A DNA stretch of 64,000 nucleotides from Geopsychrobacter electrodiphilus DSM 16401 (GTDB lineage Bacteria; Desulfobacterota; Desulfuromonadia; Desulfuromonadales; Geopsychrobacteraceae): the NCBI RefSeq assembly GCF_000384395.1, contig NZ_ARWE01000001.1, positions 3,570,501-3,634,500 on the forward strand. Reading direction: 5' to 3'. The position numbers were made by a program, and so were the translations under genes. The notes beneath the pieces are model-generated. The model was not told where the DNA came from and did no database searches. It was given only the letters and a program-made list of their open reading frames with translations. Positions 6,723 to 42,701 of the stretch are shown piece by piece. How positions within the stretch are numbered: the first letter of the stretch is position 1; every line of letters starts with the position of its first letter.

Positions 6723-6738
6723 AGCAATCAGTATGCCA
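6723..6738 (-). promoter_or_regulatory. Sigma-54 (-24/-12) promoter of icmF
   Basis: Read on the minus strand the site is TGGCATACTGATTGCT. GG and GC are separated by exactly ten bases, as RpoN promoters require, and 13 of the conserved positions fit TGGCACRNNNNTTGCW closely. Transcription would start near 6712, leaving a 35-base leader before the icmF ATG at 6676. Confidence 0.8.
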
Positions 6739-6848
6739 CGCTTATATTTTACCTCAGCAGAGTAACTTAGGGCCGCGAGCCATCAGTCTTTTCGGAGATT
6801 GTGCGCAAAACCACCCGTGAACATCTTTCCCGCAACAGACCCGACATC

Positions 6849-6866
6849 TGTAAACACAGGTTTACA
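6849..6866. promoter_or_regulatory. Palindromic enhancer site TGTAAAC-N4-GTTTACA
   Basis: A perfect 7-bp inverted repeat around ACAG, in the divergent region between icmF and the enhancer-binding regulator. On the minus strand it contains GTGTAAAC, 122 bases from the -24 box of the icmF promoter. Similar elements precede three other sigma-54 promoters in the window, so this is the best candidate binding site for the regulator at 7069-8838. Confidence 0.7.
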
Positions 6867-6983
6867 CTTCTTTTTCAAAAGTCGGTAAATCGAAGGTTGG
6901 CCGGTGTCTACCCGGAGAACGCAATGGTGCAGGCTGTTTCCTCACAATCAAATTTTAGTTTCCAATGGCTAAACTAATTCTTT

Positions 6984-7011
6984 TTGAATTTTTTATAAAA
7001 CACTGTATTAT
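6984..7011 (+). promoter_or_regulatory. Sigma-70 promoter of the enhancer-binding regulator
   Basis: TTGAAT (6984-6989) and TATTAT (7006-7011) are spaced by 16 bases, with the regulator ATG about 58 bases downstream. No -24/-12 site was seen in this orientation, consistent with constitutive or autoregulated expression of the regulator. Confidence 0.55.
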
Positions 7012-7068
7012 CATCTTTCAACTTTCACGAAAAGAGCGAGAGACAACCAACCCAAAGGGAGTCAATCC

Positions 7069-8838
7069 ATGGGCTTTGCGCAGGTGGCAGAACGGGCCGG
7101 TTATAATCTGGACGGGGTCACCCCGTTAGAAGAGAGCTGGCTGGCGGTGCTTGATTCCGAGCAACGGATCATCACCTCCAACGAAGAATGCTTTGCCTTG
7201 CTCGCCAGACGACCCGAAGAACTGATTGGTCAGCGCCTTGGACAGGTGATTAAACTCGGTTTCCTCCATACCCTGCTGGTGCAGGGGGTCTGTTTCAAAT
7301 CACAGCCGGTCTGGATCAACAACGTTAAACACTACTGCGACTATACGTCCCTCGGCAAAGACCCTCAGCTCTCCGCCGGCCTGTTCAGCCTGATGCGCAG
7401 CGAACAACTCACGACCTCCAGCCTGGAAATGCCGGACCTGCTCTGTTCCATGGACCAGGGCTCTACCCTCACCCAGGAGAGCCTGATTCTGGTCAACACC
7501 GACTGCATCATCACCATGATCAATCAACCCTTTGCCGACGTCCTCGGATTGCGCGCCGGCGAACTGCTCGGCAAACATGTCCACAAGGCCTACCCCAACT
7601 CAAACCCCTCACGCCTGCCGGTGGTCATGGATACCGGCCAGGCCGAAGTCGCCGAGCCGCACCTGCTCAACGGGCGCCAGACGGTGGTCAGCCGCTACCC
7701 GCTATTTAAAGAGGGGAAGATGCTCGGCGCCTGGGGGAAGGTGCTGTTCAGTGATATGCGCGAGCTCACCCGCATCGCTGACAAGTTCCAGAACTTCACC
7801 CCCAGCTCGAGCGCGCCCAAATCGCGGGGGCAATCCTCGGGCCTCAGTTTCAAGTACGACTGCAACAGTATCATCGGACACAGCAAACGGATGAAGGACC
7901 TCAAGGAGAAGCTGTTGCGCATCGCCGAACGACCCTCCAACGTCCTGCTGATGGGCGAGAGCGGCACCGGCAAGGAACTCTTCGCTCACGCCCTGCATGC
8001 GGCGAGCAAGCGGCGTTATGGCCCCTTCGTACGGGTCAACTGCGCGGCCATCCCCGACCTGCTGCTCGAATCAGAACTGTTCGGCTACACCGATGGTGCC
8101 TTTACTGGCGCAAAAAAAGGGGGCCAGATCGGCAAATTCGAACTGGCCGATGGCGGCACGATCTTTCTCGACGAGATCAGCGACATGCCGATGATCATGC
8201 AGGCCAAGCTGCTGCGCGTGCTCCAGGAACGCGAGGTCACCCCCTTGGGGAGTACGGCCACCAAACGGATCGACATCCGGGTGGTGGCAGCGACCAACGT
8301 GAATCTGGAAGAGAAGGTCCGAAACGGCCTGTTCCGCACCGACCTCTATTATCGACTGAACGTCATCGCTCTCGAAATCCCGGCCTTGCGTGAGCGGCGG
8401 GATGATATCTACTTTATCACCAAACATCTGATCGACGACTTTAATGCTGAGTTCGAAATGAACATTCAAGGCCTGGACGAAGAGGCCTGGCAACTTCTGA
8501 AAAACTATGACTTCCCCGGCAATATCCGCGAACTGCGCAATGCGATAGAGAGTGCCTTCAATATGGCCACCGGCACCAGGATTGAAGCCGGGGATCTACC
8601 GCGGCATATTCGTGGAGCTTCGCCGAGCGCCGTCTCGCCGCTGGACTCTTCCCAACAGGAGAACCTGCTCTCCTGCATCGGCCAGAAGCCCTTACAGGAG
8701 ATTATGGACGAGATGGAACGGCTCTTGATTGAGGCCTCCCTGACACAGTCCGGCGGCAACAAACTGAACGCCGCAAGCGTGCTGGGAATCTCGCGCCCCG
8801 GTCTCTACAAAAAACTGCATAAATACCACCTCCAGTAG
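7069..8838 (+). CDS. Sigma-54-dependent enhancer-binding regulator with PAS sensors
   Basis: A 589-residue NtrC-class activator. The N-terminal half holds two PAS-like regions (about 20-110 and 135-235) and no receiver domain, so it probably senses a ligand or redox state directly. The AAA+ domain has Walker A GESGTGKE (296-303) and the sigma-54 contact loop GAFTGA (343-348), followed by Walker B TIFLDEISDM. The C-terminal Fis-type helix-turn-helix (AASVLGISRPGLYKKLHKY) binds DNA. AAGGGAG precedes the ATG. It is divergent from icmF with a palindromic site between them, and four catabolic units in the window carry sigma-54 promoters. It is therefore proposed, by inference, as their activator. 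Confidence 0.93.
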   Translation: MGFAQVAERAGYNLDGVTPLEESWLAVLDSEQRIITSNEECFALLARRPEELIGQRLGQVIKLGFLHTLLVQGVCFKSQPVWINNVKHYCDYTSLGKDPQLSAGLFSLMRSEQLTTSSLEMPDLLCSMDQGSTLTQESLILVNTDCIITMINQPFADVLGLRAGELLGKHVHKAYPNSNPSRLPVVMDTGQAEVAEPHLLNGRQTVVSRYPLFKEGKMLGAWGKVLFSDMRELTRIADKFQNFTPSSSAPKSRGQSSGLSFKYDCNSIIGHSKRMKDLKEKLLRIAERPSNVLLMGESGTGKELFAHALHAASKRRYGPFVRVNCAAIPDLLLESELFGYTDGAFTGAKKGGQIGKFELADGGTIFLDEISDMPMIMQAKLLRVLQEREVTPLGSTATKRIDIRVVAATNVNLEEKVRNGLFRTDLYYRLNVIALEIPALRERRDDIYFITKHLIDDFNAEFEMNIQGLDEEAWQLLKNYDFPGNIRELRNAIESAFNMATGTRIEAGDLPRHIRGASPSAVSPLDSSQQENLLSCIGQKPLQEIMDEMERLLIEASLTQSGGNKLNAASVLGISRPGLYKKLHKYHLQ

Positions 8839-8920
8839 TCACCGGAGCAGGTGGCAACCCCGCCAACAACCGGGGATTCTGGTCTGACAACACGGTTCTT
8901 TGACGCTGACTTCTGCCGAC

Positions 8921-8946
8921 TGTAAATGGGGTGTAACAGTGTAAAC
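8921..8946 (+). promoter_or_regulatory. Upstream activator site of the liv operon
   Basis: An imperfect palindrome TGTAAAT-GGGG-TGTAACA (8921-8938) is immediately followed by GTGTAAAC (8939-8946). The last element ends 122 bases before the -24 box at 9068, the same distance as the icmF site. The 335-base gap after the regulator gene otherwise holds only a weak CCCCG/CGGGG hairpin near 8864-8881. Confidence 0.6.
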
Positions 8947-9083: not shown

Positions 9084-9173
9084 ATCTTCAGGTTCTTCAC
9101 TATCATCTTCGAATCGTTGTCGGCCAGGCTATCCGCTGCGATCTAGTTTTCCCGCTTGAGGAGGATTCCTTCT

Positions 9174-9992
9174 ATGGCTGAAACACCCCCTCTGCTTCAG
9201 GTCAGCGACATCTCCCTCTCTTTCGGCGGGGTTCATGCCCTGACCGACGTCAGCTTCAGCGTCAACCCAGGCGAAATCTTCTCAATCATCGGTCCTAACG
9301 GTGCCGGTAAGACATCTATGCTCAACTGTATCTCGGGCCGCTACCAGCCGAACAAGGGTTCGATCACCTTCCGGCAGAAGGAGATGATCGGCCTGCGCCC
9401 CAACGACCGCTGCACCTTGGGGATCGGCCGCACCTTTCAGAATCTTGCGCTCTTCGCCCACATGACCGTACTCGACAACATCATGGTCGGACGTCACCAT
9501 CTGCTCAAAAACAACTTCCTCAGCGGCTCCCTCTACTGGTTAACCGGCGCACGAAGAGAGGAATTGAAGCACCGCGCCGAGGTCGAGGACATCATCGATT
9601 TTCTCGAGATCGCGCATATTCGCAAGTCGATCGCCGGCACTCTCTCCTACGGTCTGCGCAAACGGGTCGAGCTGGCCCGCGCCGTGGCCCTGCGTCCCGA
9701 TCTGATTCTGCTCGATGAACCGATGGCCGGGATGAATCTGGAAGAGAAAGAGGACATGGCGCGCTACATCATCGACCTCAATGAAGAGTGGGGGATGACG
9801 GTGGTAATGATCGAGCACGACATGGGGGTGGTCATGGATATCTCCCACCGGGTGATGGTGCTCGATTTCGGCAAGAAGATCGCAAGTGGCCTGCCGGACG
9901 AAGTGATGGCCAACCCACAGGTTAAAAAAGCCTATCTGGGCGTGGATGACGAACCTTCTGCAACTGCACAATCCGCCGGGGAGGTTGCCTGA
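9174..9992 (+). CDS. livG: Branched-chain amino-acid-type ABC transporter ATPase LivG
   Basis: A 272-residue cytoplasmic ATPase of the HAAT (Liv) family. Walker A IGPNGAGKTS near residue 40, the signature region LSYGLRKRVELARAV (a divergent LSGGQ) and Walker B LILLDEPMAGMN are visible. The C-terminal LivG segment (HDMGVVMDISHRVMVLDFGKKIASG) is complete. The ATG at 9174 is favoured by GAGGAGG 9 bases upstream. It is the first gene of the unit behind the sigma-54 promoter, and its TGA overlaps the ligase ATG by one base, so the two are translationally coupled. Substrates may be branched-chain or other carboxylic/aromatic acids. Confidence 0.93.
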   Translation: MAETPPLLQVSDISLSFGGVHALTDVSFSVNPGEIFSIIGPNGAGKTSMLNCISGRYQPNKGSITFRQKEMIGLRPNDRCTLGIGRTFQNLALFAHMTVLDNIMVGRHHLLKNNFLSGSLYWLTGARREELKHRAEVEDIIDFLEIAHIRKSIAGTLSYGLRKRVELARAVALRPDLILLDEPMAGMNLEEKEDMARYIIDLNEEWGMTVVMIEHDMGVVMDISHRVMVLDFGKKIASGLPDEVMANPQVKKAYLGVDDEPSATAQSAGEVA

Positions 9993-11947
9993 TGCCAGCC
10001 GAATACGCCGATATCAAGCAGTACGACACCTTTCCCAAGCTGCTCGCCTACAACGCAGCCAACTGGCCGGACGAAGTCGCCCTGCGCGAGAAGGAGTTCG
10101 GCATCTGGAACGCTTACAACTGGAGCGCTTACCATAAGCTGGTCAAGCACTTTGCCCTCGGCATGCACCATCTGGGGATCGCCCATGGTGATTCGGTCGG
10201 CATCATCGGCGACAATCGACCGGAATGGGTGATCGGTGAGATTGCCTCCCATGCCCTGCGCGCGATGATCTTCGGCATCTACCAGGATTCGCTCAACGAA
10301 GAGGTCGCCTACCTGATCAACTACGCCGGCGCCAAGATCATCATCGCCGAGGATGAAGAGCAGGTCGACAAGGTCCTTGAGATCACCGCCGAGTGCCCCT
10401 GCGTGAAGCACATCATCTATTGTGACCCGCGCGGCATGCGCAAATACGATGATCCTCGCCTGCTCAGCCACCTCGACCTGATGAAAGCGGGCGAACAGCT
10501 GGACGCCGAGCAGCCAGAGCTCTACGCGCAGCTGCTCGCTGCGGGACAGGCGGCAGATGTCGCCATCCTCTGCCCGACCTCCGGCACCACCTCGAATCCG
10601 AAACTGGCCATGCTGCAATGTGGGCCGATGCTCGAACACAGCCTCGCCTATCTGCACGCCGACCCCAAGTATCCGAGCGACAACTATGTCTCGGTGCTGC
10701 CGCTCCCCTGGATTATGGAACAGGTCTACGCCGTGGCTCAGGCGCTGATCTGTCGTCAGATCGTCAACTTCGTCGAGGAACCAGAGACGATGATGGCCGA
10801 CCTGCGCGAGATCGGCCCGAACTTCGTGCTCCTGGCGCCGCGCGTCTGGGAGTCCGTCGCCGCCGACGTCAAGGCCAAGATGATGGATGCCACCCCGTTT
10901 AAACAGAGGATGTTCAAGTTCGGCATGGCGCTGGCCGACAAGGCCGCCCTGCAGGGGAAGGCACAGTCGAAACTGGCCTACTGGCTGCTGTTCAAGGCGC
11001 TCAAGGACCGGCTCGGCTTCTCCTTTCTGCGCTCGGCCGCGACCGGTGGCGCCGCCCTGGGCCCCGACACCTTCAAGTTCTTCCTCGCCATGGGGGTGCC
11101 GCTCCGCCAACTGTACGGCCAGACCGAAATGGGCGGGGCCTACACCATCCATGAGGCGGACGATGTGGATTTCGACAGCGTCGGTATCCCCTTCGAAAAC
11201 GCCGAGGTGCGCATCGATAACCCTGATGCTAACGGCGTTGGCCAGGTCGTCGCCAAATCGAAAGGGATGTTTCTCGGCTACTTCAACAACGAGCAGGCCA
11301 GCGCGGATGCCCTCAGCGACGGCTGGATGCTCACTGGCGACGCCGGCTATTTCAAAAAAGAGAACGGCCATCTGGTGGTCATCGACCGGATCTCCGACCT
11401 GGCCGAAACTGCGACCGGCACGCGCTTCTCGCCGCAGTTCATCGAGAACAAGCTGAAGTTCTCCCCCTTTATCGCCGAGGCGGTCGTCCAGGGGGATGAA
11501 CGCCCCTATCTGGCGGCGATCATCTGCATCCGCTTTGACATCGTCGCCAAATGGGCCGAACAGCGCGGGCTTGCCTTTACCAACTACATCAACCTCTCGG
11601 CCCAGCCGCTGATCTACGACATGGTGCAGAAGGAGGTGGAGCAGGTTAACGCCAGCCTGCCCGAGGCCCAGCGGATCCGCAAATTCCTGCTGCTCTACAA
11701 GCAACTCGACGCCGACGACGGCGAGCTGACCCGCACCCGCAAGGTACGCCGCGGAGTGATCAAGGAGAAGTACGCCGAGATCATCGATACAATCTACAGC
11801 GAAGAGGAGATCGTCCATATCGACACGGTCATCACCTTTCAGGACGGCAACAAATCTCGCATCCAGACCGATGTCCGGGTGGTTGATCTGCAGAAGGAAT
11901 CTGCAGGCCAGCTGACCAAACAGGTCCGGCGGCAAGCGGCCCACTAA
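9992..11947 (+). CDS. AMP-forming long-chain-type acyl-CoA synthetase inside the liv operon
   Basis: A 651-residue adenylate-forming enzyme making an acyl-CoA from a carboxylic acid, ATP and CoA. The ATP loop is TSGTTSNPK (about 196-204), followed by YGQTEMGGAYT and LTGDAGYFKKENGHLVVIDR, with a lysine in the C-terminal lid (TRTRKVRRGVI). Length and motifs match the FadD15-like long-chain acyl-CoA synthetase group, but family membership does not fix chain length. It is wedged between livG and livH, its start overlapping the livG stop. That suggests the imported compound is an acid trapped as its CoA ester, rather than an amino acid; this is inference. Confidence 0.9.
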   Translation: MPAEYADIKQYDTFPKLLAYNAANWPDEVALREKEFGIWNAYNWSAYHKLVKHFALGMHHLGIAHGDSVGIIGDNRPEWVIGEIASHALRAMIFGIYQDSLNEEVAYLINYAGAKIIIAEDEEQVDKVLEITAECPCVKHIIYCDPRGMRKYDDPRLLSHLDLMKAGEQLDAEQPELYAQLLAAGQAADVAILCPTSGTTSNPKLAMLQCGPMLEHSLAYLHADPKYPSDNYVSVLPLPWIMEQVYAVAQALICRQIVNFVEEPETMMADLREIGPNFVLLAPRVWESVAADVKAKMMDATPFKQRMFKFGMALADKAALQGKAQSKLAYWLLFKALKDRLGFSFLRSAATGGAALGPDTFKFFLAMGVPLRQLYGQTEMGGAYTIHEADDVDFDSVGIPFENAEVRIDNPDANGVGQVVAKSKGMFLGYFNNEQASADALSDGWMLTGDAGYFKKENGHLVVIDRISDLAETATGTRFSPQFIENKLKFSPFIAEAVVQGDERPYLAAIICIRFDIVAKWAEQRGLAFTNYINLSAQPLIYDMVQKEVEQVNASLPEAQRIRKFLLLYKQLDADDGELTRTRKVRRGVIKEKYAEIIDTIYSEEEIVHIDTVITFQDGNKSRIQTDVRVVDLQKESAGQLTKQVRRQAAH

Positions 11948-11965
11948 CCCCTTAAGGAGAGAAAG

Positions 11966-12859
11966 ATGAATTTTGAACTGCTGACCCAGCTACTGGTCAA
12001 CGGCCTGATCGTCGGCACCCTCTACGGGGTGGTGGCCATGTGCTTCGTGCTGATCTACAAATCGACCCGTATCATCAATTTTGCCCAGGGTGAATTTCTG
12101 CTCATCGGCGCCTGGACCTGCTGGGCGATGCTGGTCAAATTTCAGCTCCCCTTCTACTTCGCCTTCCCCCTGACCCTGGTGTTCATGTTTATTTTCGGCA
12201 TCGTGCTGCAGATCGTGGTGTTGCGCCCGATGATCGGCGAACCGATCATCTCGGTAATCATGGTCACTATCGGCCTCTCGATGTTTTTCCAGGCGCTGGT
12301 CTCCTGGATTTTTGGCGGCTACACCAAAGCCTTTCCCAAGGTCTTTGAAACCGAATCGGTGAATATCGCCGGGCTGCAGATCGAGACCGCCTACATCATG
12401 AGTCTGGTCATTTCGCTCATCATCATGGTCGGCTTCTATATCTTCTTCAAATATTCGCGAATGGGGCTGGCGATGCGCGCCACCGCCTTCAACCAGCAGA
12501 TCGCCCAGAGCCTCGGGATCTCGGTCAAACACGTGTTTGCCGCCGCCTGGGCAATTTCCGCGGTCGTTTCGGCCCTGGCCGGGGTGGTCATCGGCATGGT
12601 CAACGGCGTCTCCTCGGCGCTCTCCTTCATCGGCATCAAGGTCTTTCCGGTGGTGATTCTGGGCGGCATGGATTCGATCATCGGCTCGATTGTCGGCGGA
12701 CTCATCATCGGGGTGCTCGAGAATCTGGCCGAATTTTTCGACAGCCAGTGGCTGCACCTCGGAAACATGTACAACATCGCCCCCTTCTATGCCCTGGTCA
12801 TTATTCTGATGATCAAGCCTTATGGGCTCTTCGGCACCAAAGACATCGAGAGGATTTAA
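11966..12859 (+). CDS. livH: Liv-type ABC transporter permease LivH
   Basis: A 297-residue membrane protein with about eight hydrophobic segments. It shows the LivH pattern LLVNGLIVGTLYGVVAM at the N-terminus, RIINFAQGEFLLIGAW and, near the C-terminal side, VVILGGMDSIIGSIVGGLIIG (EAA-like loop region). AAGGAG stands 7 bases before the ATG. It pairs with LivM as the heterodimeric channel of the high-affinity uptake system and lies 18 bases after the ligase gene. Confidence 0.93.
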   Translation: MNFELLTQLLVNGLIVGTLYGVVAMCFVLIYKSTRIINFAQGEFLLIGAWTCWAMLVKFQLPFYFAFPLTLVFMFIFGIVLQIVVLRPMIGEPIISVIMVTIGLSMFFQALVSWIFGGYTKAFPKVFETESVNIAGLQIETAYIMSLVISLIIMVGFYIFFKYSRMGLAMRATAFNQQIAQSLGISVKHVFAAAWAISAVVSALAGVVIGMVNGVSSALSFIGIKVFPVVILGGMDSIIGSIVGGLIIGVLENLAEFFDSQWLHLGNMYNIAPFYALVIILMIKPYGLFGTKDIERI

Positions 12860-12863
12860 GCCT

Positions 12864-13928
12864 ATGGCCTCTGCTCATTCACGCATGCGCTGCGGAGAGT
12901 TCCGCACCAACTACCGACAGGACACCACGATCTTCCCGACCCCCCTGGCACGGCGGGTGGCGATTGTTTCAATTCTGGTGCTGATGCTCTCCCCCCTGGT
13001 GTGCGACGCCTACCAGCTGAACCTGCTGATCCAGATCGGCTACTACGGCATTGCCGCATTGGGGCTGAACATCGTCGTCGGGTTCACCGGCCAGATCTCC
13101 CTCGGCCACGCCGCCTTCTTCGGTCTGGGGGCCTTTACCTCCGCCTGGATCAACAACACCACCGGCCTGCCGGTCTTCTTCTGCATCCCGCTGGCGGGGC
13201 TTTTGACCATGGCCGTCGGGCTGATGGTCGGCATCCCGGCCGGCCGGATCAAGGGACTCTACCTGGCGATCGCGACTCTGGCCTCGCAGTACATCCTCGA
13301 AGACTTCTTCGCCCGCGCCGACTGGTTTACCGGCGGCTCGGCCGGCGCCATGGCCGCCCCGTTCAGCATTTTCGGCTACACCATGAACGACGACCGCTCC
13401 TATTTTTATGTCGTACTCTTCTACGTCATCATCATGTTCCTGGCCGGCACCAACCTGTTGCGCACCCGCGACGGCCGAGCCTTTATCGCGGTACGTGATC
13501 ATTACCTGTCGGCCGAAATCATGGGGATCAACCTCAACAAATACCGGATTCTCTCCTTCGGCATCTCCTCGTTCTATGCCGGAATCGGCGGCGCCCTTTT
13601 TGGTCACTACCTTGGCTTCGTCTCGGTCGAAGGCTTCACCATCGTGCTTTCGATTCAGTTTCTGGCCATGATCATCATCGGCGGCCTCGGCTCGGTGATG
13701 GGGACCATGCTCGGCACCATCTTCATGGTGCTGCTCCCCGAGGTGATGGCGTTTGGCGTGCATCTGATCGGGAGTAACAGCACTGCTTTGACCCAGGCTT
13801 TGGCCTACATCAAAGCCATGTCCATCGGCCTGGCGATTATCCTGTTTCTGATCTTTGAACCGGACGGCCTGTCCCATCGCTGGAAGATGATCAAGAACTA
13901 CTGGAAGCTGTATCCGTTTTCGTACTGA
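12864..13928 (+). CDS. livM: Liv-type ABC transporter permease LivM
   Basis: A 354-residue polytopic membrane protein. YYGIAALGLNIVVGFTGQISLGHAAFFGLGA is cut here to its core GLNIVVGFTGQISLGHA, the diagnostic LivM segment; GLYLAIATLASQYI and FLAMIIIGGLGSVMGTMLG follow. The ATG at 12864 follows livH by four bases, with GAGAGGA as the ribosome site. The first 30 residues are hydrophilic, slightly longer than in many LivM proteins. It forms the translocation channel with LivH. Confidence 0.93.
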   Translation: MASAHSRMRCGEFRTNYRQDTTIFPTPLARRVAIVSILVLMLSPLVCDAYQLNLLIQIGYYGIAALGLNIVVGFTGQISLGHAAFFGLGAFTSAWINNTTGLPVFFCIPLAGLLTMAVGLMVGIPAGRIKGLYLAIATLASQYILEDFFARADWFTGGSAGAMAAPFSIFGYTMNDDRSYFYVVLFYVIIMFLAGTNLLRTRDGRAFIAVRDHYLSAEIMGINLNKYRILSFGISSFYAGIGGALFGHYLGFVSVEGFTIVLSIQFLAMIIIGGLGSVMGTMLGTIFMVLLPEVMAFGVHLIGSNSTALTQALAYIKAMSIGLAIILFLIFEPDGLSHRWKMIKNYWKLYPFSY

Positions 13929-13940
13929 TCTGCAAACTCC

Positions 13941-13968
13941 CTGGCATCTGGTCTGAAGACCCTGCCAG
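13941..13968 (+). other. Hairpin in the livM-livK gap
   Basis: CTGGCA (13941-13946) pairs with TGCCAG (13963-13968) around an inner GGTCT/AGACC stem. No U-run follows. The remaining 238-base gap contains a TATAAT at 14061-14066 without a good -35 box, so livK may have an extra weak start; this is uncertain. Confidence 0.4.
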
Positions 13969-14166
13969 CAGGAAGTCAAGTGACGACGTTGAACGCAGGC
14001 AGGGGCTGGAGACCCGTTGCTCTTGCTGGTGAGGCTGAAACCATAGACAGATATGCTCGCTATAATTTCCAAGGCAGTGCTTGCCTGGGGTTGAGAGTTT
14101 ACGCACGGGAACCGACTCCCCGATGACCCCGTCATGTTCCATCAACGTTTAAGGAGGAAACACGTC

Positions 14167-15414: not shown

Positions 15415-15423
15415 GTTATTCCT

Positions 15424-15453
15424 CTGTGCGGGGGTGATATCATCCCCGCACAG
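15424..15453 (+). terminator. GC-rich hairpin after livK
   Basis: CTGTGCGGGG pairs with CCCCGCACAG around a short AT-rich loop, a stem of about 13 pairs, directly after the livK stop. There is no U-run; it more likely stabilises the livK message or partly attenuates read-through to livF. Confidence 0.55.
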
Positions 15454-15545
15454 CTTCAATCTTCGAGGTGCGGGCTTCCCGTTATTGAATTCCAGACCTG
15501 GAATATTGAACACCGAACCTTTTCCCTTTTGATCGGAGTGTTTCC

Positions 15546-31990: not shown

Positions 31991-32108
31991 TCTGTCACCA
32001 ACGAGACAGTCAGCTACAGCAGCCCCAAAACCAGAGTTACGCATAATTTGATTATGATTACAGACAGTTACCTCTATAAGCTGATGTCAACTTCACCAGC
32101 CCGGCGGT

Positions 32109-32124
32109 TGGTATTTTCCTTGCT
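32109..32124 (+). promoter_or_regulatory. Sigma-54 promoter of the EMO/etf/beta-oxidation operon
   Basis: TGGTATTTTCCTTGCT fits the -24/-12 consensus, with GG and GC exactly ten bases apart. Transcription would start near 32136, about 22 bases before the ATG at 32158. Confidence 0.8.
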
Positions 32125-34140: not shown

Positions 34141-34162
34141 GGATAACCTTTAAAAGACAAGC

Positions 34163-34274
34163 TTCACCACGGAGGCCACAGAGAACACAGAGGAAGGTCA
34201 ACACACAGGCAAGGCTCTTGGATAAAACCAAAAAGATGGGTTTTCTCGGTGTCCTCCATGTTCTCCGTGGTGAA
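34163..34274. repeat. Inverted pair of CACCACGGAG-type elements
   Basis: TTCACCACGGAG with ACACAGAGGA (34163-34193) and its approximate complement CCTCCATGTTCTCCGTGGTGAA (about 34253-34274) flank some 60 unrelated bases in the EMO-etfB gap. Related sequence occurs at 36016-36043 and 40052-40134, so this is a dispersed intergenic element. Confidence 0.65.
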
Positions 34275-34304
34275 AAAAAAAGACTTTAAACAGGAGGTCA
34301 AGGA

Positions 34305-35075: not shown

Positions 35076-35090
35076 ATACAGGAGTGAACC

Positions 35091-36002
35091 ATGAAAGCAT
35101 TACTGGTTGGAGAATATAGAGAAGGAAAACTGCTGGAGTCGACCTACGAGCTGGTCGGCTTCGCCCAGAAACTCGGCTGTGAGTTCGAGCTGTTCCTGGT
35201 CGGGACGGAAGCCGCCCTGCCCCAGGTGAACGCCAAGCTTTATCTGGCCGATGTCGCCACAGTCGGGGAATACAACCCGGCGCTGCACAAGCAGCTGATT
35301 CTGGATGCGGTTGATAAAGCCAACGCCGATACGGTGGTCTTTCTTCATTCGAGCAGCGGCTGGGATCTGGCACCGCGGGTGGCCTTGGCGCTGGGCGCGG
35401 CGCAACTCTCCGAGGTGGTGGAGATCAAGGGGGATGGCTATCTGCTCCCGGCCTGCAACGCCAAGCTGCGGCGCACGGTGAAGGCCGCCACCGGCAAGAG
35501 TGTCATCACCCTGCAGGCCGGAGCGTTCATGCCGGCTGAACAGAGCGGCGCTCCCCAGGTGGAGAAGCTGACCACCAGCACCCCGGCGCAGAGCGAATTC
35601 CTGGGATACGAGCAGGCCGAAGCGGGACAGGTCGATCTGGGCAAGGCCGAGATCATCGTCAGCGCCGGACGCGGAGTCGGCAAACCGGAGAACGTCGCCA
35701 TGATTCAGGCGCTGGCCGAAGCCTTGGGCGGCGAATACGGCGCCAGTCGCCCGGTGGTCGACGCCGGCTGGGCACCCCATGACCGGCAGGTCGGCACCAC
35801 CGGCCAGGTGGTCTCGCCCAAGCTCTATGTGGCCTGCGGCATCTCGGGCGCGATCCAGCATCTGGCCGGGATGAAGAAATCGGAGTTCATCCTCGCGATC
35901 AACACCGACAAGGACGCCCCCATCGGCGAAGTCGCCGACGTACTGGTGGTGGCCGATATCAAACAATTTGCGCCGGCCTTGACTGCAAAACTGGCTGGCT
36001 AA
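35091..36002 (+). CDS. etfA: Electron transfer flavoprotein alpha subunit
   Basis: A 303-residue alpha subunit. The C-terminal FAD domain is clear: SAGRGVGKPENVAMIQALAE, VVDAGWAPHDRQVGTTGQVV, YVACGISGAIQHLAGM and INTDKDAPI. ACAGGAGTG precedes the ATG, 15 bases after etfB. No extra ferredoxin or bifurcating insertion is seen, so a conventional ETF is likely. It works with etfB and the EMO-type protein. Confidence 0.95.
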   Translation: MKALLVGEYREGKLLESTYELVGFAQKLGCEFELFLVGTEAALPQVNAKLYLADVATVGEYNPALHKQLILDAVDKANADTVVFLHSSSGWDLAPRVALALGAAQLSEVVEIKGDGYLLPACNAKLRRTVKAATGKSVITLQAGAFMPAEQSGAPQVEKLTTSTPAQSEFLGYEQAEAGQVDLGKAEIIVSAGRGVGKPENVAMIQALAEALGGEYGASRPVVDAGWAPHDRQVGTTGQVVSPKLYVACGISGAIQHLAGMKKSEFILAINTDKDAPIGEVADVLVVADIKQFAPALTAKLAG

Positions 36003-36015
36003 AACGAGAGCAGGG

Positions 36016-36043
36016 TACCACGGAGAGCACAGAGGACACCGAG
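36016..36043. repeat. TACCACGGAGAGCACAGAGG element
   Basis: A copy of the dispersed CACCACGGAG...CACAGAGG element in the etfA-thiolase gap; a remnant of the opposite arm (CTCTGTG, 36073-36079) lies downstream. Confidence 0.5.
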
Positions 36044-36118
36044 ATCGGCAAGAAGTTCTTTGGGGTTATTGCCCTCTGTGATGAAAAAGGATTTTCCTAA
36101 CTGAAAGGACAAACGCTC

Positions 36119-37294
36119 ATGCAGGACGTATTCATAATCGAGGCGCTGCGCACCCCCTTTGGCAGTTTTGGTGGCGGTCTGGCTGATGTCCCGGCACCAC
36201 AATTAGCCGCAACCGTGGTTAAGGCGCTGCTCGCCAAAACTGGAGTTGCCGCCGACCAGATCGATCAATTCATCGCCGGCCAGGTGATTCAGGGCGGCGT
36301 CGGTCAGGCGCCCGCACGTCAGGCAATGCGCGCCGCCGGACTGCCCGACAACATTCCGGCAATGACCATCAACAAAGTCTGCGGCAGCGGGCTTAAGGCT
36401 ATCATGCTCGCCGCCGACAGTATCCGCCTGGGTGACGATCAATTCTCCATCGCCGGCGGCATGGAGAACATGTCGCTTGCTCCCTACTGTCTGCCGACAG
36501 CGCGCTACGGCATGCGCATGGGGAACGCCGAAGCGATCGACCTGCTCATTCATGACGCCCTGCGCGACCCTTTTACCGGGCGCCACATGGGGGAAGTCAC
36601 CGAGGAGGTTATCGCCCGCCTCGCCATCAGCCGCGCAGATCAGGACGAGTATGCCCTCGATTCCTACCGGCGCGCCCAGCATGCCATTACCGAAGGACTG
36701 CTGGCGTCTGAAATTGTTCCGGTCATAAAGCAGACGCGCAAAGGCGATGTCGTCTTCGATAAGGATGAAGACCCCTTCCGTGTCGACTTTGACCGCTTCA
36801 CTTCACTACGCCCGGCCTTCCGCAAAGACGGCACTCTAACTGCCGGCAACGCCTCAACCATCAGCGATGGCGCATCTTTCGTCATGCTCGCGAGCAAGGC
36901 CGCGGTCGAAAAGTTCGGACTTAAACCGCGCGCACGCCTGGTCGCCTACGCCACCAACAGCCTGCATCCCGATAACTTTCCCGAAGCTCCGGTTGGCGCC
37001 ATCGAACGCGCATGTGCCAAGGCCGGGCTGACAACGGAGCAGATCGACCTGTTCGAGATCAACGAGGCCTTCGCCGCCGTTACCATGATCGCCATCCGCC
37101 AGCTCGGCCTCGACCGCAACAAGGTCAACATCAATGGCGGCGCCTGTGCCATTGGCCATCCGGTCGGCGCCAGCGGCGCACGCCTGGTGACCACCCTGCT
37201 CAACGGCCTGGAACAGCGCCAGCAGCGTTACGGCCTGGCGACTCTGTGCATCGGTGGCGGTGAAGCTGTCTCGGCGATAATCGAGAGGATTTAA
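36119..37294 (+). CDS. atoB: Acetyl-CoA C-acetyltransferase (thiolase)
   Basis: A 391-residue degradative/biosynthetic thiolase. The nucleophile Cys is in INKVCGSGLKAIML near residue 88, the second active-site region is NGGACAIGHPVGASGAR near 345, and the final Cys is in LCIGGGEAVS. GAAAGGAC precedes the ATG. In this operon it would cleave acetoacetyl-CoA, the product of butyryl-CoA oxidation, into two acetyl-CoA. An exact substrate range (acetoacetyl- versus 2-methylacetoacetyl-CoA) cannot be told. Confidence 0.93.
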   Translation: MQDVFIIEALRTPFGSFGGGLADVPAPQLAATVVKALLAKTGVAADQIDQFIAGQVIQGGVGQAPARQAMRAAGLPDNIPAMTINKVCGSGLKAIMLAADSIRLGDDQFSIAGGMENMSLAPYCLPTARYGMRMGNAEAIDLLIHDALRDPFTGRHMGEVTEEVIARLAISRADQDEYALDSYRRAQHAITEGLLASEIVPVIKQTRKGDVVFDKDEDPFRVDFDRFTSLRPAFRKDGTLTAGNASTISDGASFVMLASKAAVEKFGLKPRARLVAYATNSLHPDNFPEAPVGAIERACAKAGLTTEQIDLFEINEAFAAVTMIAIRQLGLDRNKVNINGGACAIGHPVGASGARLVTTLLNGLEQRQQRYGLATLCIGGGEAVSAIIERI

Positions 37295-37302
37295 CAACGA
37301 TC

Positions 37303-37400
37303 ACCGCAAAGACGCGGAGGACGCAAAGAATCGCAACTGATCAGCAACAAAGATCTTCGCTCTGAAGATAATCTCTTTGCGCACTTTGCGTCTTGAGTGA
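37303..37400. repeat. Inverted GCAAAGACGC / GCGTCTTTGC-like repeat
   Basis: GCAAAGACGCGGAGGACGCA in the left part and CTTTGCGCACTTTGCGTCTT in the right part are approximate complements, flanking about 50 bases in the thiolase-dehydrogenase gap. It is a different family from the CACCACGGAG element but has the same layout. Confidence 0.5.
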
Positions 37401-37436
37401 GCGCAAGCGGTAACTTTTCAATAGGGAGTAAGAAGA

Positions 37437-38291
<855 letters not shown>

Positions 38292-38404
38292 TGCTTGCGT
38301 AAAAAGTATCAGATTGAATGGCTAAGCAAAAAACGCCAAATGCAGCAACACCGCAGTTGACAAGCTTTTGCGCCGCCATCAGCAATTAACCTCAGGAGGA
38401 GAGC

Positions 38405-39196
38405 ATGGCTTACAAAAGTATTCTGGTGCACCTTGACCAGTCATCGCGGAGTCCAGGCCGATTTGATCTCGCACTTGATTTGGCCAAACGCCAGCAGGCC
38501 TGCCTCAATGGCTACTATGCCACCTCGATGCCCTATCTGGTTCAGCAGGTCGGACAACATCATATTGAGACCCTTGCTGAATGTCGTGAAAAAGCACTCA
38601 ACGCCGGTGTGACCTTCAACTGGGTGGCGGAAGCCGAAGAGCTTGAGCAGCAACTGCTTTCCGCGCGCCTGAATTATCAGTCCTTTTTCAGCGACCTGAC
38701 GATCATCGGACAACCCGCCGCAGACGCCGGGGCCTCCTCAGCAATCCCACGGGATCTGCCGGAAAAACTGATTCTGACCTCGGGACGTCCGATCCTGACC
38801 ATCCCGTTTGCCGGGAATTTTCTGCAAATCGGCCGGCGGGCCATGGTTGCCTGGCGCTCGGGGCGGGCCTCGGCGCGTGCCGTTGCCGATGCGCTACCAC
38901 TTTTGACTCAGGCTGATTCGGTCCATCTGCTCAGCTTTGCCACCAACAATACAGAGTCTGTCCTGGGCGAAAAAACTCTGAAAAAATTGGCTGGCTTTCT
39001 GGCCCTTCACGGGATTGACACAACGACCGAATCGCGACCGATCCAAGGCATCAGTTTTGGCGATGCCTTGCTGAATCGCGCGGCCGAAGAGGGGATCGAT
39101 CTGCTCGTCGCTGGCGGCGCGCTCCCCTCCTCACCGGCCCCGCTGGCCACTCAATTATTGAAACAGATGACGATTCCGGTGCTGATGTCGAGTTGA
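38405..39196 (+). CDS. UspA-type universal stress protein
   Basis: A 263-residue protein with the universal stress protein fold (MAYKSILVHLDQSS at the N-terminus; a second Usp half begins near FLQIGRRAMVAWRSG and ends PIPVLMSS-like). Nucleotide-loop glycines are poorly conserved in the first half (IIGQPAADAG). AGGAGGAGAGC precedes the ATG. It sits in the middle of the beta-oxidation genes, between hbd and the crotonase, an unusual place for a stress protein; role unknown. Confidence 0.85.
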   Translation: MAYKSILVHLDQSSRSPGRFDLALDLAKRQQACLNGYYATSMPYLVQQVGQHHIETLAECREKALNAGVTFNWVAEAEELEQQLLSARLNYQSFFSDLTIIGQPAADAGASSAIPRDLPEKLILTSGRPILTIPFAGNFLQIGRRAMVAWRSGRASARAVADALPLLTQADSVHLLSFATNNTESVLGEKTLKKLAGFLALHGIDTTTESRPIQGISFGDALLNRAAEEGIDLLVAGGALPSSPAPLATQLLKQMTIPVLMSS

Positions 39197-39255
39197 GACA
39201 CAGCGTTACGGCGACGACTGCCAGCCCCAACCCATATCAGTCAAGGAGTTGATCA

Positions 39256-40038
39256 ATGGACTTTGAAAACCTGCTTTATAACTGCAATGAGGGGATCGCA
39301 ACCCTCTACATCAACCGCCCCAAAGCCTTGAATGCCCTGAATGCTGCAACCATCAGGGAGTTGATCTCCGCGTTTACACGCATCGGCGCTGATGCTGAGG
39401 TCAAACTGGTGATTCTGACCGGAAGCGGCGAAAAAGCCTTTGTTGCCGGTGCCGATATTTCCGAAATGCAGCCGCTTGATGCGATCACCGGACGCCAGTT
39501 TGCGCTGCTGGGCCATCAGCTGGCGGCACTCATTGAAGAGCTGCCCAAGCCGGTCATAGCAGCGGTTAACGGCTTCGCCCTCGGCGGCGGCTGTGAACTG
39601 GCGCTCTGTTGCGACATTCGCCTGGCGAGCGATAACGCCCGCTTCGGCCAGCCCGAGGTCAATCTCGGCGTGATCCCCGGCTTCGGCGGCACCCAGCGTC
39701 TGGCCCGCCTGATCGGCAAGGGGCGCGCCAGCGAACTGATCATGACCGGCGATATGGTTGACGCCGCCGAGGCCTACCGGATCGGTCTGGTCAATAAGGT
39801 CTATCCCGCAGCTGAATTGCTGGCGGCGGCGCAGAAGATGGCGCAGAAGATCGCCTCCAAGGGTCCGGTGGCGGTCGGTCTGGCCAAGGCCGCCCTGCGC
39901 GACGGACTTGAAACCGACCTGACCCGCGCCTGCGCCCGCGAAGCCGACCTCTTCGGCCTTTGCTTCGCCACCGCCGATCAAAAGGAAGGGATGCAGGCCT
40001 TTCTGGAGAAACGCCCGGCACAGTTTGCAGGGAAATAA
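39256..40038 (+). CDS. crt: Short-chain enoyl-CoA hydratase (crotonase)
   Basis: A 260-residue canonical crotonase. Both catalytic glutamates are present, in GGGCELALCCD and FGQPEVNLGVIPGFGGTQR, and the oxyanion loop is KAFVAGADISEM. CAAGGAG precedes the ATG. It hydrates crotonyl-CoA and similar enoyl-CoAs between the acyl-CoA dehydrogenases downstream and the dehydrogenase/thiolase upstream in the operon. Confidence 0.93.
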   Translation: MDFENLLYNCNEGIATLYINRPKALNALNAATIRELISAFTRIGADAEVKLVILTGSGEKAFVAGADISEMQPLDAITGRQFALLGHQLAALIEELPKPVIAAVNGFALGGGCELALCCDIRLASDNARFGQPEVNLGVIPGFGGTQRLARLIGKGRASELIMTGDMVDAAEAYRIGLVNKVYPAAELLAAAQKMAQKIASKGPVAVGLAKAALRDGLETDLTRACAREADLFGLCFATADQKEGMQAFLEKRPAQFAGK

Positions 40039-40051
40039 AAATGAAATTTTT

Positions 40052-40134
40052 TTACCACAGAGCACACAGAGGCCACTGAGAAAACCAGAGACTCAAACCT
40101 TGTCTGTCACGCCTTGGCCATTCTCTGTGTTCTT
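40052..40134. repeat. TTACCACAGAGCACACAGAGG element with opposite arm
   Basis: Third copy of the dispersed ACCACGGAG-type element, here as ACCACAGAGCACACAGAGG (40054-40072), with a weak opposite arm TTCTCTGTGTTCTT (40120-40133). It lies in the crt-dehydrogenase gap. Confidence 0.5.
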
Positions 40135-40152
40135 AAATAAAGGATTAAATCT

Positions 40153-41310
40153 TTGAATTTGGATCTCACTGAAGAACAAAAACTGATCCAGCAGACCGCG
40201 CGCGAATTTGCCGAGGCAGAGCTGGCCCCGGTCGCGGCGCAGTTGGACCAGAACGGTGATCAGCAACCCTTCTTCGACAACCTGCGCAAGCTAGCCGAAC
40301 TCGGCTTCATGGGACTGAACGTGCGCGAAGAGTACGGCGGCGCCGAAACCGGCGTGGTCGCTTTCTCCGTCGCCCTGACCGAGATCGCCCGCGCCTGCGC
40401 CTCGACTGCGGTGACGCTGTCGGTCAACAACATGGTCTGCGAAGTGATTCAGGCGGTCGGCAACGAAGCACAGCGCCAGGCGTACATCCCGCGCATCTGC
40501 TCTGGAGAGTATCCGGCCGGGGCCTTTGCTCTGACCGAAGCCGGGGCTGGCTCCGATCCCGCCGGCATGACCACCAGCGCGGTACTCGACGGTGAAGACT
40601 GGGTCTTAAACGGCAGCAAGCTGTTCATCACCAGTGCGCCTTACGCCGGGGTCTTTGTGGTTTGGGCGATCACCGACAAACTCGCTCCCAAGGGGAAAGG
40701 GATCAGCTGCTTTCTCGTCGAACAGGGTACGCCGGGCCTGAGTATCGGCAAGCAGGAAGAGAAGATGGGGCAGCACGCCTCAGCCACCAACGAGATCAGC
40801 TTCAGCGACTGCCGCATTCCGCAGAGCGCGCTGATGGGGAAACTGAACGACGGCTTCCGCATTGCGGTCGGCGAGCTGGCCGGAGGACGCATCGGCATCG
40901 GCTCGCTGGCGCTGGGGGTCGGGCTGGCCGCCATCGACTGCGCCAGCCGTTACGCCCTCGAGCGCAAGCAGTTCGGTCAAAAACTGGCCGACTTCCAATC
41001 GACCCAGTGGAAGATCGCCGATGCCTACACCGAACTGGAAGCCGCACGTCTGCTGCTGATGAACGCCGCATTCCAGAAGGAGCAGGGCCGCTCCTTCGCC
41101 CGCGCCGCCTCCATGGCCAAACTCTTCGCCAGCGAAAGCGCCAACCGCGTCTGCTACGAAGCCCTCCAGATTCATGGCGGCTACGGCTACACCCGCGATT
41201 ATCCGGTCGAGCGCTACGCCCGCGATGCGCGCATCACCAGCATTTATGAGGGGACCAGCGAGATCCAGCGCCTGATCATTGCTCGCGATATCTTGCACAG
41301 TTTGAGTTGA
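40153..41310 (+). CDS. Acyl-CoA dehydrogenase (short-chain type)
   Basis: A 385-residue FAD flavoprotein that forms a trans-2-enoyl-CoA and reduces ETF. The start is a TTG with AAAGGATT 9 bases upstream; the next residues ([20 protein letters not shown]) are the standard N-terminus, so no earlier start is needed. FAD and substrate motifs [15 protein letters not shown] and [17 protein letters not shown] are present, and the catalytic Glu lies in [10 protein letters not shown] near residue 365. Butyryl-CoA or 2-methyl-branched acyl-CoA is the likely substrate class. Confidence 0.92.
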
Positions 41311-41368
41311 GCCTGCAGGCATAGATCCTTTTTAAATTATTGGAATCGAACAACAGGAGGAAGTACCG

Positions 41369-42514
41369 ATGATCTTTGAATTGAATGAAGAACAGAAGCT
41401 GATCCGCCAGACAGTGCGCGAGTTTGCCGAAAAAGAGATCAAACCGAGCGCCGCCGAGCGCGACGAGAACGAAAGCTTCGACCGCAGCCTGATGTTCGAC
41501 AAGGTCGGTGAACTCGGCCTGGCCGGGATTGTGTTCCCCGAAGAATACGGCGGCGCCGGCGCCGATTACATCAGCTACGCCATCGCGGTCGAAGAGCTCT
41601 CCCGCGTCTGCGGGTCGACCGGGGTCACGCTCTCGGCGCATCTCTCATTGGGCGCCAACCCGATCTACCTGTTCGGCAGCGAAGAGCAGAAGCAGCAGTA
41701 TCTGGTGCCGCTCGCCGAAGGGACCAAGCTCGGGGCCTTCGCCCTGACCGAAACCGCGGCGGGCTCCGATGCCGGCGGGACCAAGACCACGGCGGTGCGC
41801 GACGGCGACAGCTGGGTTTTGAACGGCACCAAGATCTTCTGTACCAACGGCGGCGAGGCCGAGATCAATATCGTTTTTGCCCGCACCGATAAGAATGCCG
41901 AGAAACATCACGGCATCAGCGCCTTCATCGTCGAGAAGGACACCCCCGGGTTCAGCTTCGGCAAGAAGGAGAAGAAGCTCGGCATCCGTTCTTCACCGAC
42001 CCGCGAGCTGGTGTTCGACAACTGCCGGATTCCTGCGGCCAACCTGCTGGGTACGGAAGGAAGCGGCTTCAAGGTCGCGATGAAGACCCTCGATGGCGGC
42101 CGGATCGGCATCGCCGCTCAAGCCCTGGGGATCGCTCAAGGCGCCTATGAGGCCGCCCTCGACTATGCGCGCGAACGCAAGCAGTTCGATCAGCCGATCG
42201 CCAGCTTCCAGGCGGTGCAGTTCAAGTTGGCCGACATGGCGACCGAAATCGAGGCCGCGCGCCTGCTGGTCTATCAGGCCGCGTATAAGGCGAGCGCCGG
42301 GCTGCCTTACGGCAAGGAATCGGCGATGGCCAAGATGTATGCTTCGGATGTGGCGATGAAAGTCACCACCGAGGCGGTCCAGATCTTCGGTGGCTACGGC
42401 TTCACCCGCGACTTCCCGGTTGAACGCATGATGCGCGACGCCAAGATCACCCAGATCTACGAGGGGACCAACGAAGTCCAGCGGATCGTCATCGCAGCGG
42501 CGATCACGCGCTGA
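41369..42514 (+). CDS. Acyl-CoA dehydrogenase (second, short-chain type)
   Basis: A 381-residue paralogue of the preceding enzyme: [38 protein letters not shown] and the catalytic Glu in [25 protein letters not shown] precedes the ATG. Two tandem enzymes suggest separate specificity for straight and branched acyl-CoAs (butyryl- and isobutyryl- or 2-methylbutyryl-CoA), an inference. It is the last gene of the unit behind the 32109 promoter. Confidence 0.92.
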
Positions 42515-42551
42515 CAGTTTCGGCAGCAATGGGTTCAACGGCGGTAGACAG

Positions 42552-42583
42552 GTGTAAAGACATATCGTCTCCGTCCGTTGACA
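42552..42583 (+). promoter_or_regulatory. Upstream activator site of the leucine operon
   Basis: GTGTAAAG (42552-42559), one base from the GTGTAAAC of the other sites, ends 127 bases before the -24 box at 42686. Farther on TTGACACC (about 42578-42585) makes an imperfect inverted partner. Weaker than the icmF site. Confidence 0.45.
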
Positions 42584-42685
42584 CCCGCCAGAACCAGATT
42601 CTGAGCCAAACGAAAGTCCCCTTTTAATGTGTGTAATTCCAGAGAGTTAAGCCAGGAGATTTTATAAACAGAGAAAAACTGAGCT

Positions 42686-42701
42686 TGGCATTGGGATTGC
42701 T
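42686..42701 (+). promoter_or_regulatory. Sigma-54 promoter of the leucine/isovalerate operon
   Basis: TGGCATTGGGATTGCT is a near-consensus -24/-12 site with GG and GC exactly ten bases apart. Transcription would start near 42713, about 33 bases before the ATG at 42746. The remaining gap (42515-42685) shows no other feature. Confidence 0.85.

What the first reader, a model, noticed from the sequence alone, without database searches (positions are those of the whole stretch)
6723..42701. Four catabolic units share sigma-54 promoters and a GTGTAAAC element at fixed distance
Seen: -24/-12 sites at 6723-6738 (minus), 9068-9083, 32109-32124 and 42686-42701, each with GG and GC ten bases apart. GTGTAAAC or GTGTAAAG elements end 122, 122, 130 and 127 bases upstream of the -24 boxes (minus-strand at icmF). 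The only enhancer-binding regulator in the window (7069-8838) sits beside the best palindrome. Inference: one PAS-sensor activator coordinates uptake, mutase, beta-oxidation and leucine steps, a regulon I know no description of.
Basis: partly seen in the sequence, partly recalled or inferred. Interest (0 to 1): 0.85.

Follow-up and report, generated by a model that had tools for sequence, protein, structure and literature searches.

The report
Activator regulon for branched-chain acid oxidation
In bacteria of the Desulfuromonas group, one sensor protein beside the isobutyryl-CoA mutase gene very probably switches on four separate gene sets for taking up and burning branched-chain acids or amino acids, and relatives carry the same DNA switch at the matching genes.

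Summary
The four sigma-54 promoters are where stated and are the only strict -24/-12 sites in the window, among 36 genome-wide. A weight matrix trained on icmF promoters of other genomes ranks exactly these four units first of the 36 (unit 2 only narrowly). A search for element plus promoter in 136 genomes of the order gave 32 places in 23 genomes: 28 lie at icmF (or the gene heading its operon), ABC1, FeS or ivd. Hits track the activator (21 of 35 genomes with it, 2 of 101 without), and icmF promoters of genomes without it lack the element. In other orders 14 of 14 fetched loci carry it, 16 of 17 sites 108-112 bp from -24. The regulon is very probably real. Nine literature searches showed no description, but the kind (PAS-type enhancer-binding protein with TGT/ACA repeat, e.g. 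BkdR) is well known. Binding, activation and ligand are untested.

The parts
7069..8838 (+). enhancer-binding protein (589 aa): two tandem PAS domains, sigma-54-interacting AAA+ domain with GAFTGA, Fis-type HTH (GNKLNAASVLGISRPGLYKKLHKY)
   Evidence: Pfam, translation, fold of residues 1-260 pLDDT 80, HTH compared in 54 sequences, window included
6847..6868 (-). UAS of unit 1 (icmF): AGTGTAAACCTGTGTTTACAGA with a perfect 18-bp palindrome core; PWM 24.5; 109 bp from -24
6723..6738 (-). sigma-54 promoter of icmF
3434..6727 (-). icmF, fused isobutyryl-CoA mutase/GTPase (1902 bits vs cut-off 1500)
8919..8940 (+).
   Evidence: sites at 125-128 bp in L041, L043, L044, L045, L047, L048, L098, L099
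9068..9083 (+). sigma-54 promoter of the ABC/ligase operon
9156..16382 (+). unit 2: Liv-type ABC transporter (ATPases 9156, 15546; permeases 11966, 12822; binding protein 14134) and AMP-binding acyl-CoA ligase (9992); operon end not determined
31971..31992 (+). UAS of unit 3: GGTGTAAACAAAAGTGAAAATC; PWM 12.9; 117 bp from -24
32109..32124 (+). sigma-54 promoter of FeS/Etf operon
32158..42514 (+). unit 3: membrane FeS protein (CCG + 4Fe-4S + NarI-like; ETF:menaquinone reductase type, name recalled), EtfB, EtfA, thiolase, 3-hydroxyacyl-CoA dehydrogenase, a 263-aa ORF without Pfam hit (38405), enoyl-CoA hydratase, two acyl-CoA dehydrogenases; one operon assumed from gene order
42564..42585 (+). 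main UAS of unit 4: ATCGTCTCCGTCCGTTGACACC; PWM 12.3; 101 bp from -24
   Evidence: matching ivd sites in L055 and L207
42531..42552 (+). second, weaker UAS-like repeat of unit 4 (PWM 9.0)
42686..42701 (+). sigma-54 promoter of the leucine/isovalerate operon
42731..49347 (+). unit 4: acyl-CoA dehydrogenase (isovaleryl-CoA type, inferred), carboxyltransferase-like and biotin carboxylase subunits, crotonase, HMG-CoA lyase (459.7 bits vs cut-off 246)
   Evidence: exact substrates inferred from gene order

Best explanation
The protein at 7069-8838 is a cytoplasmic, two-PAS enhancer-binding activator that binds the inverted repeat GTGTNNAC-N4-GTNNACAC 100-130 bp upstream of four sigma-54 promoters. 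When its PAS pair senses a catabolic signal, it oligomerises, contacts sigma-54 RNA polymerase by DNA looping through its GAFTGA loop, and opens the four promoters together. This would co-induce uptake and CoA activation (unit 2), isobutyryl-CoA to butyryl-CoA isomerisation (unit 1), beta-oxidation with electron transfer through ETF and a membrane FeS quinone reductase (unit 3), and the isovaleryl-CoA branch (unit 4). Shown here by sequence: promoters, element, conservation, co-occurrence with the activator. Inferred: binding, activation, looping, and the signal, most likely a branched- or short-chain acid or its CoA ester.
For: Matrix trained on 20 icmF promoters of other genomes: the four units rank 1-4 of the 36 strict sigma-54 sites in the genome (24.5, 12.9, 12.3, 6.3; next 5.9); without icmF the top 3 of 35, 1 in 6545 by rank (arithmetic mine). 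Only profile hit at E<=10 in the genome lies between icmF and the activator. Element (>=10 of 12) plus promoter (>=11 of 12) in the window and 45 relative stretches: 27 hits; next gene icmF, FeS or ABC1 in 22 (4 of these through an intervening 1.5-kb gene), the other five being icmF (3), FeS (1) and ivd (1). Composite pattern in 136 genomes: 32 places in 23 genomes, control 0 in the rows listed: 14 icmF, 4 gene heading the icmF operon, 6 ABC1, 3 FeS, 1 ivd, 1 divergent from the activator but cut by the contig end, 3 other. 21 of 35 activator-bearing vs 2 of 101 other genomes have a hit; icmF in 34 of 35 vs 9 of 101. Element kept at icmF on contigs other than the activator's (G063, G064, G072, G075). 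icmF promoters of 9 genomes without the activator: no sigma-54 site >=11 in 500 bp, best matrix score 2.1. Other orders: 14 of 14 fetched loci, 17 of 17 sigma-54 sites >=11 score 13.7-25.1, 16 of 17 at 108-112 bp; ivd in 4 of 4 loci that show it. Activator next to the FeS operon in L057, L060, L102, L107, L108, with a strong element in 4 of these 5.
Against: No binding, expression or transcript-start data. In the window only icmF matches the strict composite, and only icmF and FeS reach the >=10 of 12 rule; units 2 and 4 need the matrix. Unit 2 scores 6.3 (p 0.015; rank 5 in the genome scores 5.9). In the order's loci 12 of 25 ABC1 promoters (window included), 2 of 8 FeS and 1 of 4 ivd do not reach p<0.01; L102's FeS promoter scores 0.2 and L106's ivd site lies at 206 bp. 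14 of 35 activator-bearing genomes have no composite hit. Related genomes are not independent, so Fisher values overstate. Seven of the nine icmFs in genomes lacking the activator are another subclade (63-66% identity), one is 36%, and G002 (84%) is uninformative. The activator of L060 shows a 12-residue gap in its HTH although its FeS promoter has a strong element. A TetR-family regulator sits just before the unit-3 promoter.
Confidence: 0.86

Rival explanations
1. The activator controls only its immediate neighbours (icmF, ABC operon); units 3 and 4 are under another enhancer-binding protein with a similar TGT/ACA site.
For: Other enhancer-binding HTHs of the genome sit within about 0.4 kb of other strict sigma-54 sites (636869, 794900, 1743806, 1768615, 2706291, 3360636). 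TGT...ACA repeats are shared by many such proteins (PMC6615313, PMC4641369, passages).
Against: In relatives the activator gene is next to FeS operons, 4 of 5 with the element, and next to ivd with the element in L258. The nearest other HTH in the genome is 51% identical over 43 residues. No other such HTH was found in the window.
Confidence: 0.1
2. The palindrome is a TyrR-type box (TGTAAA-N6-TTTACA, recalled) bound by a TyrR relative acting on amino-acid catabolism, as predicted in Shewanella.
For: The icmF site fits that box; [quoted passage not shown]
Against: The conserved positions across relatives are GTGT..AC/GT..ACAC rather than the full TGTAAA/TTTACA. The local activator has HTH_8 and PAS domains; no ACT or TyrR-type HTH was reported at E<=0.001.
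Confidence: 0.03
3. Unit 3 is controlled mainly by the TetR/YsiA-like regulator just upstream (31326-31967) and the element there is incidental.
For: Pfam TetR_N plus YsiA-like C-terminus; the promoter lies about 140 bp beyond its stop codon.
Against: FeS promoters in L057, L060, L107, L108 carry strong elements at 108-109 bp with the activator gene as the nearest labelled neighbour. A TetR repressor does not replace the activator that sigma-54 requires (established knowledge).
Confidence: 0.1

Closest known systems
BkdR of Bacillus (B. thuringiensis/B. subtilis)
   Same: Enhancer-binding protein with two PAS/PAC domains activating sigma-54-dependent isoleucine/valine degradation (PMC4428206, passages)
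   Different: Activates one bkd operon beside its gene; here four units incl. mutase, ETF/FeS quinone reductase, transport and the isovaleryl branch; sequence relationship not tested
Clostridiales sigma-54 regulons (PrdR, LeuR and others)
   Same: UAS made of TGT/ACA inverted repeats with 10-12 bp spacers for fifteen groups, amino-acid catabolism (PMC6615313, passages)
   Different: Different targets; LeuR has a distinct motif; this protein is below the PrdR model cut-off (394 vs 795 bits)
TyrR/PhhR, incl. predicted Shewanella TyrR regulon
   Same: AAA+ regulator; similar TGTAAA...TTTACA palindrome (recalled); branched-chain amino-acid catabolic targets in Shewanella (PMC5343134, passages)
   Different: HTH_8 and two PAS here, no ACT or TyrR HTH hit; strict sigma-54 promoters here
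LiuR (MerR) / LiuQ (TetR)
   Same: Regulons for branched-chain amino-acid use (PMC5343134, passages)
   Different: Unrelated regulator families
Desulfovibrio vulgaris sigma-54 regulome
   Same: TGT/ACA half-sites at 9, 11 or 12 bp (PMC4641369, passages)
   Different: The words leucine, branched and fatty do not occur in its main text
Predicted sigma-54 control of beta-oxidation genes across bacteria
   Same: Acyl-CoA dehydrogenases, hydratases and thiolases predicted under sigma-54 (PMC12316311, passages)
   Different: Reported as enriched in Clostridia and Bacilli; isobutyryl, leucine and branched-chain do not occur in its main text

Membership tests
sigma-54 enhancer-binding proteins | AAA+ Sigma54_activat domain with GAFTGA loop | tested here: met
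   Pfam 235.9 bits; GAFTGA read in the translation
sigma-54 enhancer-binding proteins | Fis-type C-terminal HTH | tested here: met
   HTH_8 38.9 bits
sigma-54 enhancer-binding proteins | inverted-repeat UAS upstream of -24/-12 promoters | tested here: met
   (sequence only)
sigma-54 enhancer-binding proteins | ATP-dependent activation of sigma-54 polymerase | not testable with these tools
   needs in vitro transcription
BkdR | two PAS domains before AAA+ and HTH | tested here: met
   predicted fold and PAS profile matches; BkdR's layout from PMC4428206 (passages)
BkdR | sequence orthology to BkdR | not tested
   no BkdR sequence was compared
BkdR | target is the branched-chain 2-oxoacid dehydrogenase operon | tested here: inconclusive
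   no bkd genes seen in the four units, but the end of the unit-2 operon was not determined and ferredoxin-dependent 2-oxoacid oxidoreductases follow it
PrdR (NF041552) | score above the equivalog cut-off | tested here: not met
   394 vs 795 bits
TyrR | ACT domain and TyrR-type HTH | tested here: not met
   not among Pfam hits at E<=0.001

The most novel reading that the evidence does not exclude
A class-wide activator of Desulfuromonadia senses branched- or short-chain acyl-CoA (or the free acid) through a tandem PAS pair and is the master switch that couples branched-chain acid oxidation, including isobutyryl-CoA isomerisation and ETF-to-menaquinone electron entry, to respiration; its target set is rewired between lineages (icmF/ABC/FeS/ivd in one order; CoA-transferase, symporter and ivd in others) while element and spacing stay nearly constant.
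Probability: 0.4. Interest if true: 0.65.

Novelty: new member of a known kind. Interest (0 to 1): 0.52.

Why it matters
If right, it names the regulator, operator and target list for branched-chain acid and leucine-pathway oxidation in a group known for metal and electrode respiration, a process for which I saw no described regulator in the searches. It also gives a ready prediction (element plus spacing) for annotating this regulon in the 54 class genomes that carry the sensor region, and a small PAS-sensor module whose ligand can be found by direct assay.

Tried and rejected
Reading the element as the simple octamer GTGTAAAC: replaced by the 22-bp repeat once relatives were compared. A TyrR box reading: not kept. 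IHF sites between element and promoter: no clear enrichment (icmF 10 of 21 vs 7.6 expected; ABC1 23 of 25 vs 21.5; FeS 6 of 8 vs 5.5; ivd 3 of 4 vs 3.2; activator-divergent 0 of 2 vs 0.3; EtfB 1 of 1 vs 0.2). 'Other sigma-54 promoters in the same loci' as a negative control: failed as a control. The rank tests against those 17 sites were not significant (ABC1 p 0.67, FeS 0.15, ivd 0.52). The 8 best of the 17 turned out to be 3 FeS, 1 icmF, 1 ivd, 1 thiolase, 1 CoA-transferase-like (several by my reading of the translations) and 1 cut by the stretch end; the other 9 were not examined. The genome-wide set of 36 was used instead. The first null contained real sites and was redone. The fold search of the PAS pair gave generic PAS proteins with low TM-scores in the 50 rows shown, so no ligand was inferred. 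A LivK-type promoter (L151, PWM 5.9) was not added: another enhancer-binding HTH lies about 400 bp upstream. The script failed on a file name and was rerun; the downstream-gene part returned nothing because of a wrong option and was rerun.
Full report
What was checked. The window is bases 3570501-3634500 of a one-contig 4.24-Mb genome. A looser window scan shows no excess of such sites (24 vs 35.5 expected).

What the element is. I fetched stretches around activator orthologues in relatives and looked upstream of icmF, the ABC operon, the FeS/Etf operon and ivd. The conserved unit is an inverted repeat, GTGTNNAC-N4-GTNNACAC. A 22-position matrix trained on 20 icmF promoters from genomes other than the window's has 19.6 bits. 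In the window eight sites score 6 or more: 6847-6868 (24.5), 31971-31992 (12.9), 42564-42585 (12.3), 42531-42552 (9.0), 7312 (7.4), 25479 (6.5), 19668 (6.3) and 8919-8940 (6.3); five of the eight are at the four promoters. Against 190-bp stretches from the same loci outside the labelled promoters, the best score per promoter has p = 5e-5 (icmF), 0.0036 (FeS), 0.0036 (ivd) and 0.015 (ABC).

Specificity in the genome. For each of the 36 strict sigma-54 sites I scored the 190 bp from -230 to -40. The four units are ranks 1 to 4 (24.5, 12.9, 12.3, 6.3); the remaining 32 run from 5.9 down to -8.2. The matrix never saw the window, so units 2, 3 and 4 being the best three of the other 35 is a held-out test (1 in 6545 by rank). 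The margin of unit 2 over rank 5 is thin, and rank 5 (L151, a LivK-type gene) has another enhancer-binding HTH about 400 bp upstream. A profile built from 26 sites of other genomes finds one place in the genome at E<=10, the icmF-activator palindrome (E 0.85; 150 of 607 candidates scored).

Conservation. In the window and 45 fetched stretches, element (>=10 of 12 positions) plus promoter (>=11 of 12) occurs 27 times. The next labelled gene is icmF, FeS or ABC1 in 22 (in L044, L045, L047 and L048 a gene of about 1.5 kb lies between). The other five are icmF (L041, L100, L114), FeS (L059) and ivd (L053). In the window itself only icmF and FeS pass this rule. The composite pattern in all 136 held genomes of the order hits 32 places in 23 genomes, with control counts of 0 in the rows listed: 14 icmF, 4 a gene I read as ketoacyl-synthase-III-like that heads the icmF operon, 6 ABC1, 3 FeS, 1 ivd (in the closest relative), 1 divergent from an activator copy and cut by the contig end, and 3 others (G044, G120, and a TRAP-type binding protein in G107). 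In the window only icmF matches this strict pattern. By promoter class in the order's loci, best matrix scores reach p<0.01 in 21 of 21 icmF, 13 of 25 ABC1, 6 of 8 FeS and 3 of 4 ivd, window included; the icmF class is the training class.

Link to the activator. 35 of the 136 genomes carry the activator's sensor region at E<1e-30. Composite hits occur in 21 of these 35 and in 2 of the other 101; icmF (E<=1e-200) in 34 of 35 and 9 of 101. These genomes are related, so the Fisher values (1.9e-13, 1.4e-22) overstate. In four genomes (G063, G064, G072, G075; fragmented assemblies) icmF lies on a different contig from the activator and still has the element. In the 9 genomes with icmF but no activator found, none has a sigma-54 site >=11 in 500 bp upstream and the best matrix score is 2.1; G002 is uninformative because sister genomes carry an extra gene in between, seven of the others are 63-66% identical and one 36%, i.e. 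largely another subclade.

Beyond the order. 19 further genomes of the class carry the sensor region (54 of 277 in all). I fetched 14 of the 19. In these loci the matrix, trained in another order on another gene, gives 13.7-25.1 at all 17 sigma-54 sites >=11 found; 16 of 17 are 108-112 bp from -24 (the other, in L260, at 208); ivd carries it in the 4 loci that show ivd. The gene after the activator is a CoA-transferase of the acetyl-CoA hydrolase family in L248 and L251 and a sodium:solute symporter in L252; the others were not identified. So element and spacing persist while targets shift within the theme of short/branched-chain acid use.

The regulator. 589 residues: two PAS folds (residues 1-260 modelled, pLDDT 80; second PAS closest by sequence to the cytoplasmic PAS of CitA), AAA+ with GAFTGA, HTH_8. 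The HTH is well conserved in 54 sequences, window included, with SRQ in place of SRP in several from other orders and a 12-residue gap in L060. The nearest other HTH in the genome is 51% identical over 43 residues. The fold search gave generic PAS proteins.

Function (inferred from families). Unit 2 is a Liv-type transporter with an acyl-CoA ligase; unit 1 would isomerise isobutyryl-CoA to butyryl-CoA (a syntrophic isobutyrate degrader is reported to use an isobutyryl-CoA mutase this way, PMC5017805, passages); unit 3 is beta-oxidation with ETF and a membrane FeS protein of the ETF:menaquinone reductase type (that name recalled, not from a call); unit 4 looks like the isovaleryl-CoA to HMG-CoA branch. 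Two 2-oxoacid:ferredoxin oxidoreductases lie between units 2 and 3.

What is known. Sigma-54 control of amino-acid catabolism by PAS-type activators, and TGT/ACA-repeat operators, are established: PMC6615313, PMC4641369 and PMC4428206 (passages seen). BkdR of Bacillus, with two PAS/PAC domains and isoleucine/valine degradation as its target, is the closest in working. PMC12316311 (passages) predicts sigma-54 control of beta-oxidation genes, mainly in Clostridia and Bacilli. The Geobacter RpoN paper (PMC2725144) has no occurrence of leucine, branched-chain, fatty acid or acyl-CoA in its main text; the G. metallireducens genome paper (PMC2700814, abstract and passages) lists acyl-CoA genes and Etf/FeS pairs, with no activator or element for them in the passages I saw. 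Nine literature searches showed no description of this regulon in their listings; most subscription papers are not held, so this is weak evidence of novelty.

Verdict. A real, conserved sigma-54 regulon with its regulator very probably identified; a new member of a known kind. Binding, activation and signal remain to be shown.

Noticed in passing
window 31326-31967: TetR-family regulator with YsiA-like C-terminus directly upstream of the unit-3 promoter; may add local control.
   Followed up: partly
window 23666-24256: HTH plus cupin regulator between the two 2-oxoacid:ferredoxin oxidoreductase sets.
   Followed up: no
window 19801-22810 and 24558-28925: Two POR/VOR-type 2-oxoacid:ferredoxin oxidoreductase sets, the second with a gamma subunit fused to an NAD(P)-binding oxidoreductase and ferredoxin domain.
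   Followed up: no
window 29952-31226: LarA-type nickel-dependent racemase (429 bits, just below the lactate racemase cut-off of 460) amid acyl-CoA genes.
   Followed up: no
window 16562-16569 and 39372-39379: Two further GTGTAAAC octamers on the minus strand, inside gene-sized ORFs and not at any of the four promoters.
   Followed up: partly
L044, L045, L047, L048: A gene read as ketoacyl-synthase-III-like sits between the regulated promoter and icmF in four relatives.
   Followed up: partly
G046, G049, G075, G095, G128, G129: Second or third activator paralogues per genome; a CoA-transferase-like gene (my reading) follows the activator in L110.
   Followed up: partly
L060 (G056:C221): The activator's HTH shows a 12-residue gap in the alignment although the neighbouring FeS promoter has a strong element; assembly error or real loss not resolved.
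   Followed up: no
L208 (G107:C553): Element plus sigma-54 site before a TRAP-type solute-binding protein (my reading), possibly another uptake target.
   Followed up: no
G000:C1 near 637000, 795000, 1744000, 1768700, 2706100, 3360500: Several other enhancer-binding HTHs lie within about 0.4 kb of strict sigma-54 sites, suggesting further local activator-promoter pairs.
   Followed up: no
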